The translations under genes and the position numbers were made by a program. DNA of 40,290 bases from Candidatus Solibacter sp. (GTDB lineage Bacteria > Acidobacteriota > Terriglobia > Bryobacterales > Bryobacteraceae), in assembly GCA_025361425.1 (NCBI GenBank), contig JANYAH010000202.1:1-40290 (forward strand), written 5' to 3'. The notes under the pieces were generated by a model, which was not told where the DNA came from, made no database searches, and worked only from the letters and a program-made list of their open reading frames with translations. Positions 17,111 through 21,404 of this stretch are shown one piece after another (within the stretch, counting starts at the first letter, position 1; each line of letters starts with the position of its first letter).

Positions 17111-20100
17111 ATGCGTCCCGCTACTCTCGCCCTCGTTCTCTGTGGCGTCGCCCACACTGCCGCCTTGCCACCCAATCTCTTCGATCAACTCCAGTGGCGC
17201 ATGATCGGCCCTTTCCGCGGCGGACGCATCTCCTCGGTCGGCGGCGTGGCCGGCGACAGCGCCACCTTCTACTTCGGCAGCGTCGGCGGCGGCGTCTGGA
17301 AGACCACCAACGCCGGCGTCACCTGGTCGCCCATCTTCGATCGGCAGCCCATCGCTTCCATCGGTGCGCTCGCCGTCGCGCCGTCGAACCCCAGCGTGAT
17401 CTACGTGGGCACCGGCGAGGCTGATATCCGCAGCCAGATCGGCTTCGGCGATGGCGTCTATAAATCCACTGACGCCGGCAAGACCTGGCACCACGCCGGA
17501 CTCCGCGACACCCGCCAGATCGCCGCCATCCAAGTCGACCCGCGCAATCCCGATCTCGTCTACGTCGCCGCCCTCGGCCACGTCTACGGCCCCAACGCCG
17601 AGCGCGGCGTCTTCCGCTCCTCCAATGGCGGCCGCTCCTGGACCAAAATTCTCGACCGCGGACCCGAAACCGGCGCCGTCGATCTTGCCTTCGACCCCAC
17701 CACCTCCCAAACCATCTACGCCACCGTGTGGACCGCTCACCGCCCGCCATGGAGCACTTACGCCCCCATCGAAGGCCCCGGCAGCGGCCTCTTCAAATCC
17801 ACTGATGGCGGCGATCACTGGACTCAACTCACCGCCCACGGCCTGCCCGAGGTCCAATGGGGACGCAGCGGCGTCGCCGTGGCCCCCGGCGGACGCCGCG
17901 TCTACGCCCTCATCGATGCGCCCGGCGCCGGTGGACTCTATCGCTCCGATGACGCCGGCGCCACCTGGATCCGCGCCTCCGCCGACGCCCGCATCACCAG
18001 CCGCAACTGGTACTTCAGCGGCATCACCGTCGACCCCAGGAACGCCGACGTGGTCTACGCTCCCAACGTCGCCCTCTATCGCTCTACCGATGGCGGACGC
18101 AATTTCACCGTACTTAAAGGCGCCCCCGGCGGCGACGATTACCGCGCTCTTTGGATCGACCCCACCGATACCCGCCGCATGATTAGCGGCTCCGACCAGG
18201 GCACCAATATCAGCGTCGATGGCGGCCAAACCTGGAGCACCTGGTACAACCAACCCACCGCGCAGATGTACCACGTCATCACCGACAACCAGTTCCCCTT
18301 CCACGTCTACGGCTCCCAGCAGGATGCCGGCACCGCCGCCATTCCCAGCCGCACCGATCACGGCCAGATCGACGCCCGCGATTGGTATTCCGTGGGCGGC
18401 GGCGAGAGCGGCGCCATCGCCGTGGATCCCAAAAACCAGAACATCCTCTACGTCGGCAATACCAACGGCAGCCTCGCCCGCTTCGATAAACGCACCGGGC
18501 AATCGCAGAACATCACCCCCTGGCCGGTGCGCGGCGGCGGCGCCTTCAACAGCATCTCCACCCAAAAATATCGCTTCCCCTGGACCGCCCCGCTGGTCTT
18601 CTCCTCCATCGAGCCCGACACGCTCTACTACGGCTCGCAGTACCTGCTGAAGACTACCGATGGCGGCCTCACCTGGCAGGAGATCTCTGGCGATCTTACC
18701 GGCGACACCCGCCAGGATAAATCCGCGCCCACCGTCCCCGTGACCCCCGTAAACGCGCGCGAACTCGGCTTCGGCGTAATCTATTCCATCGCGCCCTCTC
18801 CGCTGCGCGCCGGCATGGTGTGGGCCGGCAGCGATACCGGCCTCATCCACCTCACGCGCGACGCCGGCAAGACGTGGACTAATGTCACCCCGCCCGGCCT
18901 CGCCGCCTGGAGCAAGGTCACGCAGATTGAAGCCTCGCACTTCGACCCCGCCACCGCCTGGGCCGCCGTGGATCGCCATCGCCGCGAAGACTACAAGCCC
19001 TACATCTACCGCACCCACGATTTCGGCAAAACGTGGACCCTCGCTGCCGATGGCCTCGCCGAGCCGGCCTACCTCAACTCCATCACGGAAGACCCCGCCC
19101 GCAAGGGCCTGCTCTATGCCGCCACCGAACTCGGCGTCGCCGTCTCCTTCGACGATGCCGCGCACTGGCAGTCGCTCCAACTCAATCTGCCCGCCGTCAG
19201 CGTGCGCGATCTGGTGGTCCACGGCGACCACCTGGTGATCGCCACCCACGGCCGCGGCTTCTGGATTCTCGACAACATCACGCCGCTCCGTCAGGTCGAC
19301 GAACGCTCTGCCGCCGCCGATGTCGTGCTCTACCGCCCCGCCGTCGCCGTCCGCCTGAATCCCGAGAGCTTCTTCGGCACACCCTTCCCGCCCGAAGAAC
19401 CCAAAGCCAAAAATCCGCCCGATGGCGCCATTGTCGATTTCTACCTGAAAGCCGCCCCCGCCGCCGACATCACCCTGGACATCCTCGATGCCAAAGGCGA
19501 GGTGATTCGCAGCTACTCCAGCCAGCCCCAGCCCGAAGCGCCGCGCCGTCCCGCTGCGGTCGCCGATATCTGGATTGCGCCGCCCTCCCGCCTCACCGCC
19601 AGGCCCGGCATGAACCGCTTCGCCTGGGACCTTCGTTATTCCAATCCCGGCCAGGAAGGCGCCGCCGGCCCGCAGGTGCTGCCCGGAACCTACACCGTCC
19701 GTCTCACCGCCGCCGGCCGCGGCACTACGCAGCCGCTCACCGTTATGCTCGACCCGCGTTCCACCGCCACCCCCGCGGAAATCCGGCAGCGCTTCGACCT
19801 CTCCCTGTCCCTGTGGCGCGACATGAACCGCGCCGCCGAAGCTTCCCGCGAAGGTGCCGCGCTACGTCGCGCGCTCGCCGATCGCCGCCAGGCCGCCGCA
19901 CCTGACGCCGCGGCGAAACTCAATGCGCTCGATGCCGATGCCGCCCGCATTCTCGGCGCCCCCCCCGGCGGCGGCAGAGCTGGACGCGGTGGAGCCGCCG
20001 CCGCGGGAACCACCATCGCTGGGGTGGCCGCGGAGCTCGCCACCGCTCTGGAAGTCGCCGAGAGCGCCGACCGCACGCCGCCTGCCACCGCCTACGAAAT

Positions 20101-20197
20101 CGCCCGCCAGGCAAGCCGCGAACTGGCTACCCTGCTGACCACTTGGAAGACCTTGCGCGACACTAGGTTCAAGGAACTCAACCTGCCGCCCCATTGA
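17111..20197 (+). CDS. Exported Asp-box/VPS10-like beta-propeller protein
   Basis: 1028 residues with a signal peptide (cleavage near residue 18-20). The first ~720 residues contain about eleven Asp-box repeats of the S/T-x-D-x-G-x-T-W type (for example STDAGKTW, SSNGGRSW, STDGGDHW, SDDAGATW, VDGGQTW, TTDGGLTW, RDAGKTW), typical of sortilin/VPS10-like and BNR propellers. Probably two linked propellers are present. It begins with the family signature W-R-M-I-G-P-F-R-G-G-R. The C-terminal 300 residues include an Ig-like region and a helical end with a Gly/Arg/Ala-rich linker (about 950-975). Asp boxes are structural, so no enzymatic role can be assumed despite frequent glycosyl hydrolase labels. 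It is probably co-transcribed with the S46 peptidase, and a joint role in peptide scavenging is possible. Confidence 0.85.
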   Translation: MRPATLALVLCGVAHTAALPPNLFDQLQWRMIGPFRGGRISSVGGVAGDSATFYFGSVGGGVWKTTNAGVTWSPIFDRQPIASIGALAVAPSNPSVIYVGTGEADIRSQIGFGDGVYKSTDAGKTWHHAGLRDTRQIAAIQVDPRNPDLVYVAALGHVYGPNAERGVFRSSNGGRSWTKILDRGPETGAVDLAFDPTTSQTIYATVWTAHRPPWSTYAPIEGPGSGLFKSTDGGDHWTQLTAHGLPEVQWGRSGVAVAPGGRRVYALIDAPGAGGLYRSDDAGATWIRASADARITSRNWYFSGITVDPRNADVVYAPNVALYRSTDGGRNFTVLKGAPGGDDYRALWIDPTDTRRMISGSDQGTNISVDGGQTWSTWYNQPTAQMYHVITDNQFPFHVYGSQQDAGTAAIPSRTDHGQIDARDWYSVGGGESGAIAVDPKNQNILYVGNTNGSLARFDKRTGQSQNITPWPVRGGGAFNSISTQKYRFPWTAPLVFSSIEPDTLYYGSQYLLKTTDGGLTWQEISGDLTGDTRQDKSAPTVPVTPVNARELGFGVIYSIAPSPLRAGMVWAGSDTGLIHLTRDAGKTWTNVTPPGLAAWSKVTQIEASHFDPATAWAAVDRHRREDYKPYIYRTHDFGKTWTLAADGLAEPAYLNSITEDPARKGLLYAATELGVAVSFDDAAHWQSLQLNLPAVSVRDLVVHGDHLVIATHGRGFWILDNITPLRQVDERSAAADVVLYRPAVAVRLNPESFFGTPFPPEEPKAKNPPDGAIVDFYLKAAPAADITLDILDAKGEVIRSYSSQPQPEAPRRPAAVADIWIAPPSRLTARPGMNRFAWDLRYSNPGQEGAAGPQVLPGTYTVRLTAAGRGTTQPLTVMLDPRSTATPAEIRQRFDLSLSLWRDMNRAAEASREGAALRRALADRRQAAAPDAAAKLNALDADAARILGAPPGGGRAGRGGAAAAGTTIAGVAAELATALEVAESADRTPPATAYEIARQASRELATLLTTWKTLRDTRFKELNLPPH

Positions 20198-20260
20198 GCG
20201 CCATCCACGCGGCTACCGTCAGTTTGTTGTGGTCGCCATACAAAAATTGATAGCCTACAC

Positions 20261-20286
20261 TCTATTGACACGTAAAAAACAATAGA
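20261..20286. promoter_or_regulatory. Inverted repeat overlapping the -35 region (candidate operator 1)
   Basis: TCTATTG at 20261-20267 and CAATAGA at 20280-20286 are perfect inverted 7-mers with a 12-base gap. They cover most of the -35 hexamer and the end of the spacer of the HTH/Fic promoter. This is the position expected for a repressor that occludes polymerase. The likely ligand is the HTH protein encoded just downstream (inference). Confidence 0.55.
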
Positions 20287-20293
20287 TTATACT
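20265..20293 (+). promoter_or_regulatory. Near-consensus sigma-70 promoter of the HTH/Fic operon
   Basis: TTGACA at 20265-20270, a 17-base spacer, then TATACT at 20288-20293 (5 of 6). This is the best promoter match I found in the window. It lies in an AT-rich island (about 20213-20330) that contrasts with the GC-rich surroundings, as expected for a mobile toxin-antitoxin-like module. The start codon follows 35 bases after the -10. Confidence 0.75.
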
Positions 20294-20314
20294 ATATTCA
20301 TTAGCCATAAAAAT

Positions 20315-20330
20315 ATAGGTTGTAACCTAT
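20315..20330. promoter_or_regulatory. Inverted repeat over the start codon (candidate operator 2 / RNA hairpin)
   Basis: ATAGGTT at 20315-20321 and AACCTAT at 20324-20330 are perfect inverted 7-mers separated by two bases. The right arm includes the first two bases of the ATG at 20329, and the left arm includes the only AGG available as a ribosome-binding site. It may bind the HTH dimer, or fold in the mRNA to mask initiation. Confidence 0.55.
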
Positions 20331-20784
20331 GAACAAACCTAGACTTGCTGCCCAATCCCGCTCGCATCTCGATCAACGCTTCAAGAATATAGGGCCGGGT
20401 ATCCGCTACGCTTCACCCGTACGCGGCTGGGTCAAGGCCATCCGCGTGGCGCTCGGCATGTCAACCGCGCAACTGGCGAAGCGGCTCGGCGTCAAACAAC
20501 CCTCAGTCGTCGCGCTCGAACAATCCGAAGCGAAGGGAACCATTGAGCTGGCAACATTGCGGCGCGCGGCCGAAGCGCTTGATTGCACTCTCGTGTATGC
20601 GCTTTTGCCCAACCAACCGCTGGAGGCCATCGTCCATGACCGGGCGCGTACCTTCGCGCGCCGGCGTCTTGCGCCGGTCGAACACTCGATGCTGTTGGAG
20701 GGTCAGGAGGTGACGGCGAAGGACGCCGACGCGCGCCTTCACGAAATTGTGCGCGAAACGAACCCGCGGCTGTTCTGGGACTAG
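20329..20784 (+). CDS. Mobile mystery protein A (HTH partner of the Fic protein)
   Basis: 151 residues. The central part (about 33-88) is a Xre/Cro-type helix-turn-helix: IRVALGMSTAQLAKRLGVKQPSVVALEQSEAKG gives the helix-turn-helix pair and the recognition helix. The N-terminal 30 residues are basic, and the C-terminal ~60 are helical. The order HTH then Fic, 3 bases apart, is the arrangement called mobile mystery proteins A and B, found in scattered genomes. By analogy with toxin-antitoxin modules it should repress its own promoter, and two inverted repeats are suitably placed. I see no (S/T)xxxE(G/N) Fic-inhibition motif in it, so direct antitoxin action is uncertain. Confidence 0.85.
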   Translation: MNKPRLAAQSRSHLDQRFKNIGPGIRYASPVRGWVKAIRVALGMSTAQLAKRLGVKQPSVVALEQSEAKGTIELATLRRAAEALDCTLVYALLPNQPLEAIVHDRARTFARRRLAPVEHSMLLEGQEVTAKDADARLHEIVRETNPRLFWD

Positions 20785-20787
20785 CCC

Positions 20788-21375
20788 GTGAGCGACCTTT
20801 TCGACCAGCCCGACGATGCCGCCACCCCGCTGACGCCGCGGGAAATGCGCGATCTGATTCCGGCCCATATCGCCTATCGCCGCGAGCTAAATGAAGCCGA
20901 GCAGGAGAACATCGCCCGCGCGCAGGAATGGGCGCTCAACCGCCGCCGTAATCTGCTCAGCGAGAAATTCGTCAAGAACCTGCACCGCCAGATGCTCGGC
21001 GACGTATGGCGCTGGGCCGGGAAGCTCAGGACCAGCCCACGGAATATCGGGATTGCATCCGCGGATATTCCCGTAGCCCTGCGCCACTTGCTTGACGACA
21101 CCAAAACGTGGATCGAATACACCACGTATCCGCCCGATGGGATCGCGGTGCGCTTCCATCACCGGCTGGTGCAGATTCATCTCTTCCCGAATGGCAACGG
21201 CCGCCACTCCCGCCTCATGGCGGATCTTCTGGTGATGAGCTTCGGGCGGGAACGGTTTCCGTGGGGCCGGCAGAGTTTGCGCGATGCCGGCGCCATGCGC
21301 CAGACCTATATCGCAGCCTTGCAGGCCGCCGACAATCATGATATCGTCCCGTTGCTTGCGTTTGCCCGGGCATAG
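20788..21375 (+). CDS. Mobile mystery protein B, Fic-domain protein
   Basis: 195 residues from GTG 20788, 3 bases after the HTH gene stop. The Fic core helix motif HLFPNGNGRHSR lies at residues 131-142 (nt 21178-21213). Compared with the canonical HxFx(D/E)GNGRxxR, the acidic residue that holds Mg2+ is Asn135; the catalytic His131 and the anion-hole GNGR remain. Upstream, F-V-K-N-L-H-R-Q-M-L-G-D-V-W-R-W-A-G (61-78) is the usual Fic fold entry. Fic proteins transfer AMP or other phosphate-linked groups to target proteins. The substitution is typical of this subgroup as far as I recall, so activity may be altered rather than lost. No inhibitory (S/T)xxxE(G/N) helix is evident. Confidence 0.88.
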   Translation: MSDLFDQPDDAATPLTPREMRDLIPAHIAYRRELNEAEQENIARAQEWALNRRRNLLSEKFVKNLHRQMLGDVWRWAGKLRTSPRNIGIASADIPVALRHLLDDTKTWIEYTTYPPDGIAVRFHHRLVQIHLFPNGNGRHSRLMADLLVMSFGRERFPWGRQSLRDAGAMRQTYIAALQAADNHDIVPLLAFARA

Positions 21376-21404
21376 ATATTCACAGTCGCCGCCTCAACCT
21401 GCGC

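What the first reader, a model, noticed from the sequence alone, without database searches (positions are those of the whole stretch)
20261..20330. Self-regulating promoter of the HTH/Fic pair with two inverted repeats
A TTGACA-N17-TATACT promoter in an AT-rich island is overlapped at -35 by TCTATTG/CAATAGA, and a second inverted repeat, ATAGGTT/AACCTAT, covers the only ribosome-binding site and the ATG. Two repression layers (transcription and translation) would fit a toxin-like module. I do not recall this layout being described for mobile mystery proteins.
Basis: partly seen in the sequence, partly recalled or inferred. Interest (0 to 1): 0.6.

Follow-up and report, generated by a model that had tools for sequence, protein, structure and literature searches.

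The report
Three-operator switch of a Fic pair
Upstream of an uncharacterised two-gene "mobile mystery" module (a DNA-binding protein plus a Fic enzyme) lie three repressor sites spaced three DNA turns apart, a layout kept in almost every relative across several bacterial phyla even though the sites' spelling changes in step with the repressor's DNA-reading residues.

Summary
The promoter and both inverted repeats are in the sequence, but they belong to a larger array. The window holds three copies of one 16-bp operator (ATAG-N8-CTAT; O2 has one mismatch): O1 20250-20265, O2 20282-20297, O3 20315-20330, starts 32 and 33 bp apart. Its first repeat is the right half of O1 plus the left half of O2, so it is not a separate site. 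TTGACA begins on the last base of O1; TATACT is the centre of O2.

A matrix trained on 22 relatives without the window ranks these sites 1-3 in the whole 40 kb (22.4, 16.4, 14.5 bits; next 5.5). Of 86 non-redundant mobile mystery A loci, 95-97% carry three palindromes at 32-33 bp. Other spacings, a control downstream of the A gene, and unrelated Xre promoters do not. Operator sequence varies widely, and the three protein columns that covary best with it are residues 57-59, the start of the recognition helix. Protein A is therefore very probably the repressor.

A hairpin-based translational layer is not supported. A's invariant C-terminal motif ([ST]MxLExQ; SMLLEG here) resembles Fic inhibitory helices, suggesting a self-repressed toxin-antitoxin-like operon. 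Toxicity and binding are untested.

The parts
20250..20265 (+). Operator O1, ATAGCCTACACTCTAT; its last base is the first base of the -35
   Evidence: Second-best matrix site in the 40-kb window, 16.4 bits, matrix trained without the window
20265..20270 (+). -35 hexamer TTGACA
   Evidence: Promoter scan; TTGACA at the same place after O1 in 7 of 23 acidobacterial loci including the window, TTGA[CAT]A in 11 of 23
20282..20297 (+). Operator O2, ATAGATTATACTATAT
   Evidence: Third-best matrix site, 14.5 bits; 32 bp from O1
20288..20293 (+). -10 hexamer TATACT, positions 7-12 of O2
   Evidence: a hexamer with at least 4 of 6 matches at this place in O2 in 20 of 23 loci; T at operator position 12 in 15 of 23 O2 but 3 of 23 O3
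20315..20330 (+). Operator O3, ATAGGTTGTAACCTAT, over the presumed Shine-Dalgarno (AGG 20317-20319) and the first two bases of the ATG
   Evidence: Best matrix site in the window, 22.4 bits; last site at -14 from ATG in 19 of 22 relatives
20329..20784 (+). Mobile mystery protein A (151 aa), Xre/Cro HTH; probable autorepressor and possible antitoxin
   Evidence: TIGR02612 157.9 bits, cut-off 122.6; HTH_3
20497..20505 (+). Codons of A residues 57-59 (QPS), start of the recognition helix
   Evidence: Top three of all protein columns for mutual information with the operator half-site; align with residues 28-30 of 434 repressor
20683..20706 (+). Codons of A residues 119-126 (HSMLLEGQ), inhibitory-helix-like motif
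   Evidence: M121, E124, Q126 invariant and S/T120 in 82 of 86 loci
20788..21375 (+). Mobile mystery protein B (195 aa), Fic domain
   Evidence: TIGR02613 256.4 bits, cut-off 124.4; Pfam Fic; fold close to VbhT, Z 18.0
21178..21213 (+). Fic motif of B, HLFPNGNGRHSR (N where the canonical motif has D/E; second arginine kept)
   Evidence: Read from the sequence; motif tally in relatives

Best explanation
The island is the control region of the mobile mystery A/B operon. Protein A (Xre/Cro HTH) binds as a dimer to three operators of one kind lined up on about one face of the DNA (32-33 bp, about three turns). O1 abuts the -35, O2 contains the -10, and O3 covers the early transcribed region and the start codon. 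Occupancy blocks initiation and perhaps elongation, so the operon holds itself down. Shown here by computation: the array, its conserved geometry, its fit to the promoter, and the covariation of operator sequence with recognition-helix residues 57-59. Inferred: that A binds, that it represses, and that the fixed spacing serves contact between neighbouring dimers, possibly bridged by B. Also inferred, at about 0.6: A is the antitoxin of the Fic protein B, obstructing its ATP site with the invariant C-terminal [ST]MxLExQ helix, so that loss of A both frees B and re-opens the promoter.
For: Motif-free self-similarity of 86 upstream regions peaks at 33 bp, z 24, and 32 bp, z 7.5. Matrix trained without the window ranks the three sites 1-3 in 40 kb; neighbour spacing 32 or 33 bp in 42 of 44 cases. 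Three-palindrome arrays at 32-33 bp in 95-97% of loci, median z 8.4, against medians of at most 1.0 for 11 other spacings and about zero in a control downstream of the A gene. 0 of 17 unrelated Xre promoters. 12 of 12 held-out plasmid loci have the array, z 4.4-12.3, and the four with a known helix class have the expected half-site. Residues 57, 58, 59 are the top three covarying columns; on a tree built without the helix, 8 of 11 changes at residue 58 coincide with operator changes, 2.0 expected. Promoter phase conserved. ATAG-N8-CTAT at only six places in the 5.3-Mb genome, two of them here. Antitoxin part: invariant motif, second Fic arginine kept in nearly all members, 48 of 73 loci with a 4-nt ATGA-type A/B overlap, A segment modelled next to the inhibitory-helix site at low confidence.
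Against: No binding or repression data exist. O2 in the window is imperfect (ATAT for CTAT). In about half of the close relatives no TTGANA -35 follows O1, so the promoter overlap is not universal. A full-length A-B model did not place the two proteins relative to each other (pTM 0.56). B has N for D/E in the Fic motif, so its chemistry may not be AMP transfer. Covariation is partly confounded by shared ancestry, and residue 59 ranks second, not first, in the tree-aware test.
Confidence: 0.85

Rival explanations
1. One reading: two distinct repression layers, a -35 operator (TCTATTG/CAATAGA) for transcription and an RNA palindrome (ATAGGTT/AACCTAT) that hides the ribosome-binding site for translation.
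For: Both repeats exist. The O3 element alone folds at -5.4 kcal/mol as RNA in the window. O3 covers the start codon in 19 of 22 close relatives.
Against: Same sequence recurs upstream of the promoter, where it is not transcribed. O3 symmetry is not above O1/O2 and the hairpin is weak or absent in about half of relatives. IR1 arms are O1 and O2 ends with its centre midway between them.
Confidence: 0.07
2. The array is real but is read by another regulator of the host, not by A.
For: Binding by A has not been measured; many Xre proteins exist in each genome.
Against: Operator sequence tracks A residues 57-59 across phyla and on plasmids. The motif is nearly confined to this promoter in the genome.
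Confidence: 0.05
3. A is only the repressor; B is an ordinary modifying enzyme or defence factor and the pair is not a toxin-antitoxin system (this concerns function and can be true together with the best explanation of the array).
For: The Fic motif has N in place of D/E in nearly all members. B matches candidate phage-defence models PDC-S04, E 2e-22. No toxicity report was found.
Against: A carries an invariant C-terminal [ST]MxLExQ outside the HTH, hard to explain by DNA binding alone; B keeps the second Fic arginine that pairs with the inhibitory glutamate in VbhTA and EcFicTA (PMC5033356).
Confidence: 0.35

Closest known systems
E. coli HipB and the hipBA operators (TATCC-N8-GGATA, four sites; PMC3376134)
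   Same: Xre-type antitoxin represses its own operon through several inverted-repeat operators; A has a weak match to couple_hipB and HipB structures
   Different: Partner is a Fic protein, not a HipA kinase; sites are ATAG-N8-CTAT-like and 32-33 bp apart, whereas the published O1O2 oligonucleotide has its two sites 28 bp apart (counted from its sequence in PMC3376134); operator spelling varies by clade here
Class I FicTA modules (VbhA/VbhT, EcFicA/EcFicT; PMC3667792, PMC5033356)
   Same: Small upstream partner with an [S/T]xxxE[G/N]-like motif next to a Fic gene; B's predicted fold is closest to VbhT (Z 18.0); second Fic arginine kept
   Different: Partner is a 151-aa HTH protein with operators; Fic motif has N for D/E; the G/N after the glutamate is met in the window but in only 11 of 86 loci
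Phd-Doc (PMC13034048)
   Same: Autoregulated operon with a Fic-fold toxin; in E. coli, complexes engage two adjacent palindromes
   Different: Phd is not an Xre HTH; that paper describes one or two operators, not three at three-turn spacing
434 repressor operators (established knowledge)
   Same: Same HTH class; covarying residues 57-59 align with 434 residues 28-30
   Different: Phage switch with different half-site and operator arrangement

Membership tests
Mobile mystery A/B (TIGR02612/TIGR02613) | Protein A above the curated model score | tested here: met
   157.9 bits, cut-off 122.6
Mobile mystery A/B (TIGR02612/TIGR02613) | Protein B (Fic) above the curated model score, directly downstream | tested here: met
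   256.4 bits, cut-off 124.4; B starts 3 nt after the A stop
Class I FicTA (VbhTA type) | Small partner gene immediately upstream of the fic gene | tested here: met
Class I FicTA (VbhTA type) | Inhibitory motif [S/T]xxxE[G/N] in the partner | tested here: met
   SMLLEG in the window; S/T 82 of 86, E 86 of 86, but G/N only 11 of 86 in relatives
Class I FicTA (VbhTA type) | Canonical Fic signature HxFx(D/E)GNGRxxR | tested here: not met
   HLFPNGNGRHSR: N for D/E, here and in nearly all relatives
Class I FicTA (VbhTA type) | Partner helix sits in the ATP site | tested here: inconclusive
   Truncated read-through model aligns A from residue 119 opposite the inhibitory helix of FICD and CdFic, at pLDDT about 47 and about one turn out of register; full model uninformative
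Class I FicTA (VbhTA type) | Toxin inhibits growth and partner relieves it | not testable with these tools
   Needs expression experiments
hipBA | Xre antitoxin with several inverted-repeat operators upstream | tested here: met
   Three operators, Xre HTH
hipBA | Partner is a HipA kinase | tested here: not met
   Partner is Fic
Type II toxin-antitoxin autoregulation | The partner protein binds its own promoter | not testable with these tools
   Indirect support only: operator/recognition-helix covariation and held-out plasmid loci

The most novel reading that the evidence does not exclude
The mobile mystery A/B family keeps one rigid regulatory geometry (three dimer sites, three turns apart) while rewriting operator spelling many times through a simple code of two or three residues (QPS with ATAG, QPR with ATAA, [PA]Q[ST] with ATCAG, QS[RN] with ATCAC/ATCAT and others). 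The spacing may be set by protein B bridging neighbouring A dimers, so that the Fic protein senses its own ratio to A through the DNA, and co-resident modules stay insulated from each other.
Probability: 0.35. Interest if true: 0.75.

Novelty: new variant of a known kind. Interest (0 to 1): 0.62.

Why it matters
Mobile mystery A/B is a widespread module (chromosomes of several phyla; 239 plasmid records, many from rhizobia and Agrobacterium) with essentially no characterisation in the open papers searched (four papers that name it). A conserved operator array gives its control logic, a handle to find and class members, and a direct test of how an HTH family changes DNA specificity while keeping promoter architecture. 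It also points to one residue (A glutamate 124) whose change would test whether A is an antitoxin.

Tried and rejected
RNA hairpin over the start site as a conserved device: no excess symmetry in O3, no conserved stability. TCTATTG/CAATAGA as a separate operator: it is made of O1 and O2 ends. Array as a general property of Xre promoters: 0 of 17 unrelated Xre loci exceed z 3. Array as an AT-richness artefact: dinucleotide shuffles and other spacings are negative. Docking of A on B in a full A-TAG-B read-through model: pTM 0.56, domains not placed relative to each other. The second, truncated fusion alignment was misaligned for the distant A rows, so the placement of A at the inhibitory-helix site is only suggestive. 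Viral contigs gave two relatives. Paper searches on Fic/Xre operators and on a recognition code found no description of this layout; most subscription journals are not in that library.

Full report
WHAT IS THERE. It lies in a 30% GC dip between GC-rich genes. Downstream are mobile mystery protein A (20329-20784, TIGR02612) and B (20788-21375, TIGR02613, Fic domain).

THE ARRAY. Upstream regions of relatives from other genomes of the phylum showed several copies of ATAGGYYATRRCCTAT before the A gene. A scan of genome contigs with the A alignment gave 80 more loci. After removal of near-duplicates, 86 upstream regions compared with themselves, without any motif model, show excess self-similarity at a shift of 33 bp (z 24), with smaller peaks, the largest at 32 bp (z 7.5) and 14 bp (z 7.3). 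A matrix trained on 22 acidobacterial relatives without the window finds 66 sites with consensus ATAGGCTATAGCCTAT. Neighbouring sites are 32 or 33 bp apart in 42 of 44 cases, and the last site begins 14 bp before the ATG in 19 of 22 loci. In the window the three best sites of all 40 kb are at 20315 (22.4 bits), 20250 (16.4) and 20282 (14.5); the next scores 5.5. O1, O2 and O3 are thus 32 and 33 bp apart, about three turns of B-DNA and so on roughly one face.

CORRECTING THE READING. TCTATTG/CAATAGA is not a separate site. Its arms are the right end of O1 and the left end of O2 extended by two bases, and its centre (20273.5) is the midpoint of the two operator centres (coordinates). The second repeat is O3.

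FIT TO THE PROMOTER. In the acidobacterial group TTGACA or a near form starts on the last base of O1 in 11 of 23 loci, and the -10 hexamer is positions 7-12 of O2. O2 carries T at position 12 in 15 of 23 copies, against 3 of 23 for O3 and 9 of 23 for O1, so O2 appears to be shaped by two functions at once. Five of the nine strong promoters found in other clades have the same phase; the other four share a second one. A transcription start near 20300 is inferred, giving a leader of about 29 nt largely under O3.

GENERALITY. A test for three palindromes of one kind at 32-33 bp succeeds in 95-97% of 86 loci (median z about 8.4). Eleven other spacings give median z of at most 1.0, and the control region downstream of the A gene gives values near zero. 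Seventeen unrelated Xre promoters fail. Twelve plasmid loci not used before (rhizobia, Agrobacterium, Vibrio, Sphingopyxis and others) all pass, z 4.4 to 12.3. Two of four distant A-like proteins also show repeats about 33 bp apart of yet other sequences.

OPERATOR CODE. Operator spelling differs greatly between clades (ATAGG, ATAAG, ATCAGG, AACAAC, ATCAC, GATGC, CATAT, GTGTA), yet the geometry stays. Mutual information between half-site bases and every protein column puts residues 57, 58 and 59 first, second and third. These align with residues 28-30 of the 434 repressor, part of its base-reading helix (established knowledge). QPS goes with ATAG, QPR with ATAA, [PA]Q[ST] with ATCAG, QS[RN] with ATCAC, ATCAT or GATGC. 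On a tree built without the helix, 8 of 11 changes at residue 58 fall on branches with an operator change (2.0 expected), the best of all columns; residue 59 is second best for half-site position 5. In the held-out plasmids the four loci of known helix classes have the expected half-site. This is the main reason to name A as the binder.

SPECIFICITY IN THIS GENOME. ATAG-N8-CTAT occurs at six places in 5.3 Mb, two of them here. The system looks self-contained.

TRANSLATION LAYER. The O3 hairpin is modest in the window (-5.4 kcal/mol for the element alone) and weak or absent in about half of the group. Symmetry of O3 is no greater than that of the copies upstream of the transcript. A protein roadblock at O3 remains possible.

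WHAT THE MODULE MAY DO. Outside the HTH, M121, E124 and Q126 of A are invariant and residue 120 is S or T in 82 of 86. This matches the core of the inhibitory motif [S/T]xxxE[G/N] known from VbhA and EcFicA, whose glutamate pairs with the second arginine of the Fic motif (PMC3667792; PMC5033356). B keeps that arginine but has N instead of D/E in the motif, as do nearly all members. B's predicted fold is closest to VbhT (Z 18.0, rmsd 2.8, 169 aligned). A model of A's C-terminal part read through into B begins its alignment to FICD and CdFic at A residue 119, opposite their inhibitory helices, but at low confidence and about one turn out of register if read without gaps. I hold the antitoxin reading at about 0.6. 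A published microarray lists a mobile mystery protein B gene (mll2066) among the 50 most heat-induced genes of Mesorhizobium loti (M value 4.02; PMC3989490), which would fit derepression on loss of A but is only one observation.

COMPARISON. The layout works like hipBA control (Xre antitoxin, several operators; PMC3376134) but with a Fic partner and a different spacing. It may work like class I FicTA, but it fails the canonical Fic signature, so I do not file it there. No description of the array was found in the open papers searched.

Noticed in passing
window 20198-21404; L128, L129: Two genomes of the same genus carry the upstream 1028-aa gene at 86-89% DNA identity up to about its stop codon, but what follows there has no match to the window, so the A/B pair appears to be a lineage-specific insertion.
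   Followed up: partly
L012-L015: A more distant A-like family (E. coli-like 'FFTEQI' N-terminus, [ST]-[AT]-L-E-x-Q motif) next to a Fic gene with HPFNNGNGRWAR in at least three of the four loci; two of the four also show repeats about 33 bp apart.
   Followed up: partly
L117-L120, L121-L122: Helix classes not in the training set (APS; RNQ) have their own half-sites (CATAT-type; GTAT), which could extend the residue-to-operator code.
   Followed up: no
L124: Agrobacterium pAt1 locus: no annotated A gene and no ATG found in frame, yet the operator array is intact; possibly a decaying copy.
   Followed up: no
window 20788-21375: B matches PADLOC candidate phage-defence models PDC-S04 (E 2e-22) and SoFic (E 9e-11).
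   Followed up: no
window 17111-20197: The 1028-aa neighbour belongs to a strongly expanded family: 12 matches in this genome and up to 24 in related genomes, many of them distant or partial.
   Followed up: no
PMC3989490: A mobile mystery B gene is among the 50 most heat-induced genes of Mesorhizobium loti.
   Followed up: no
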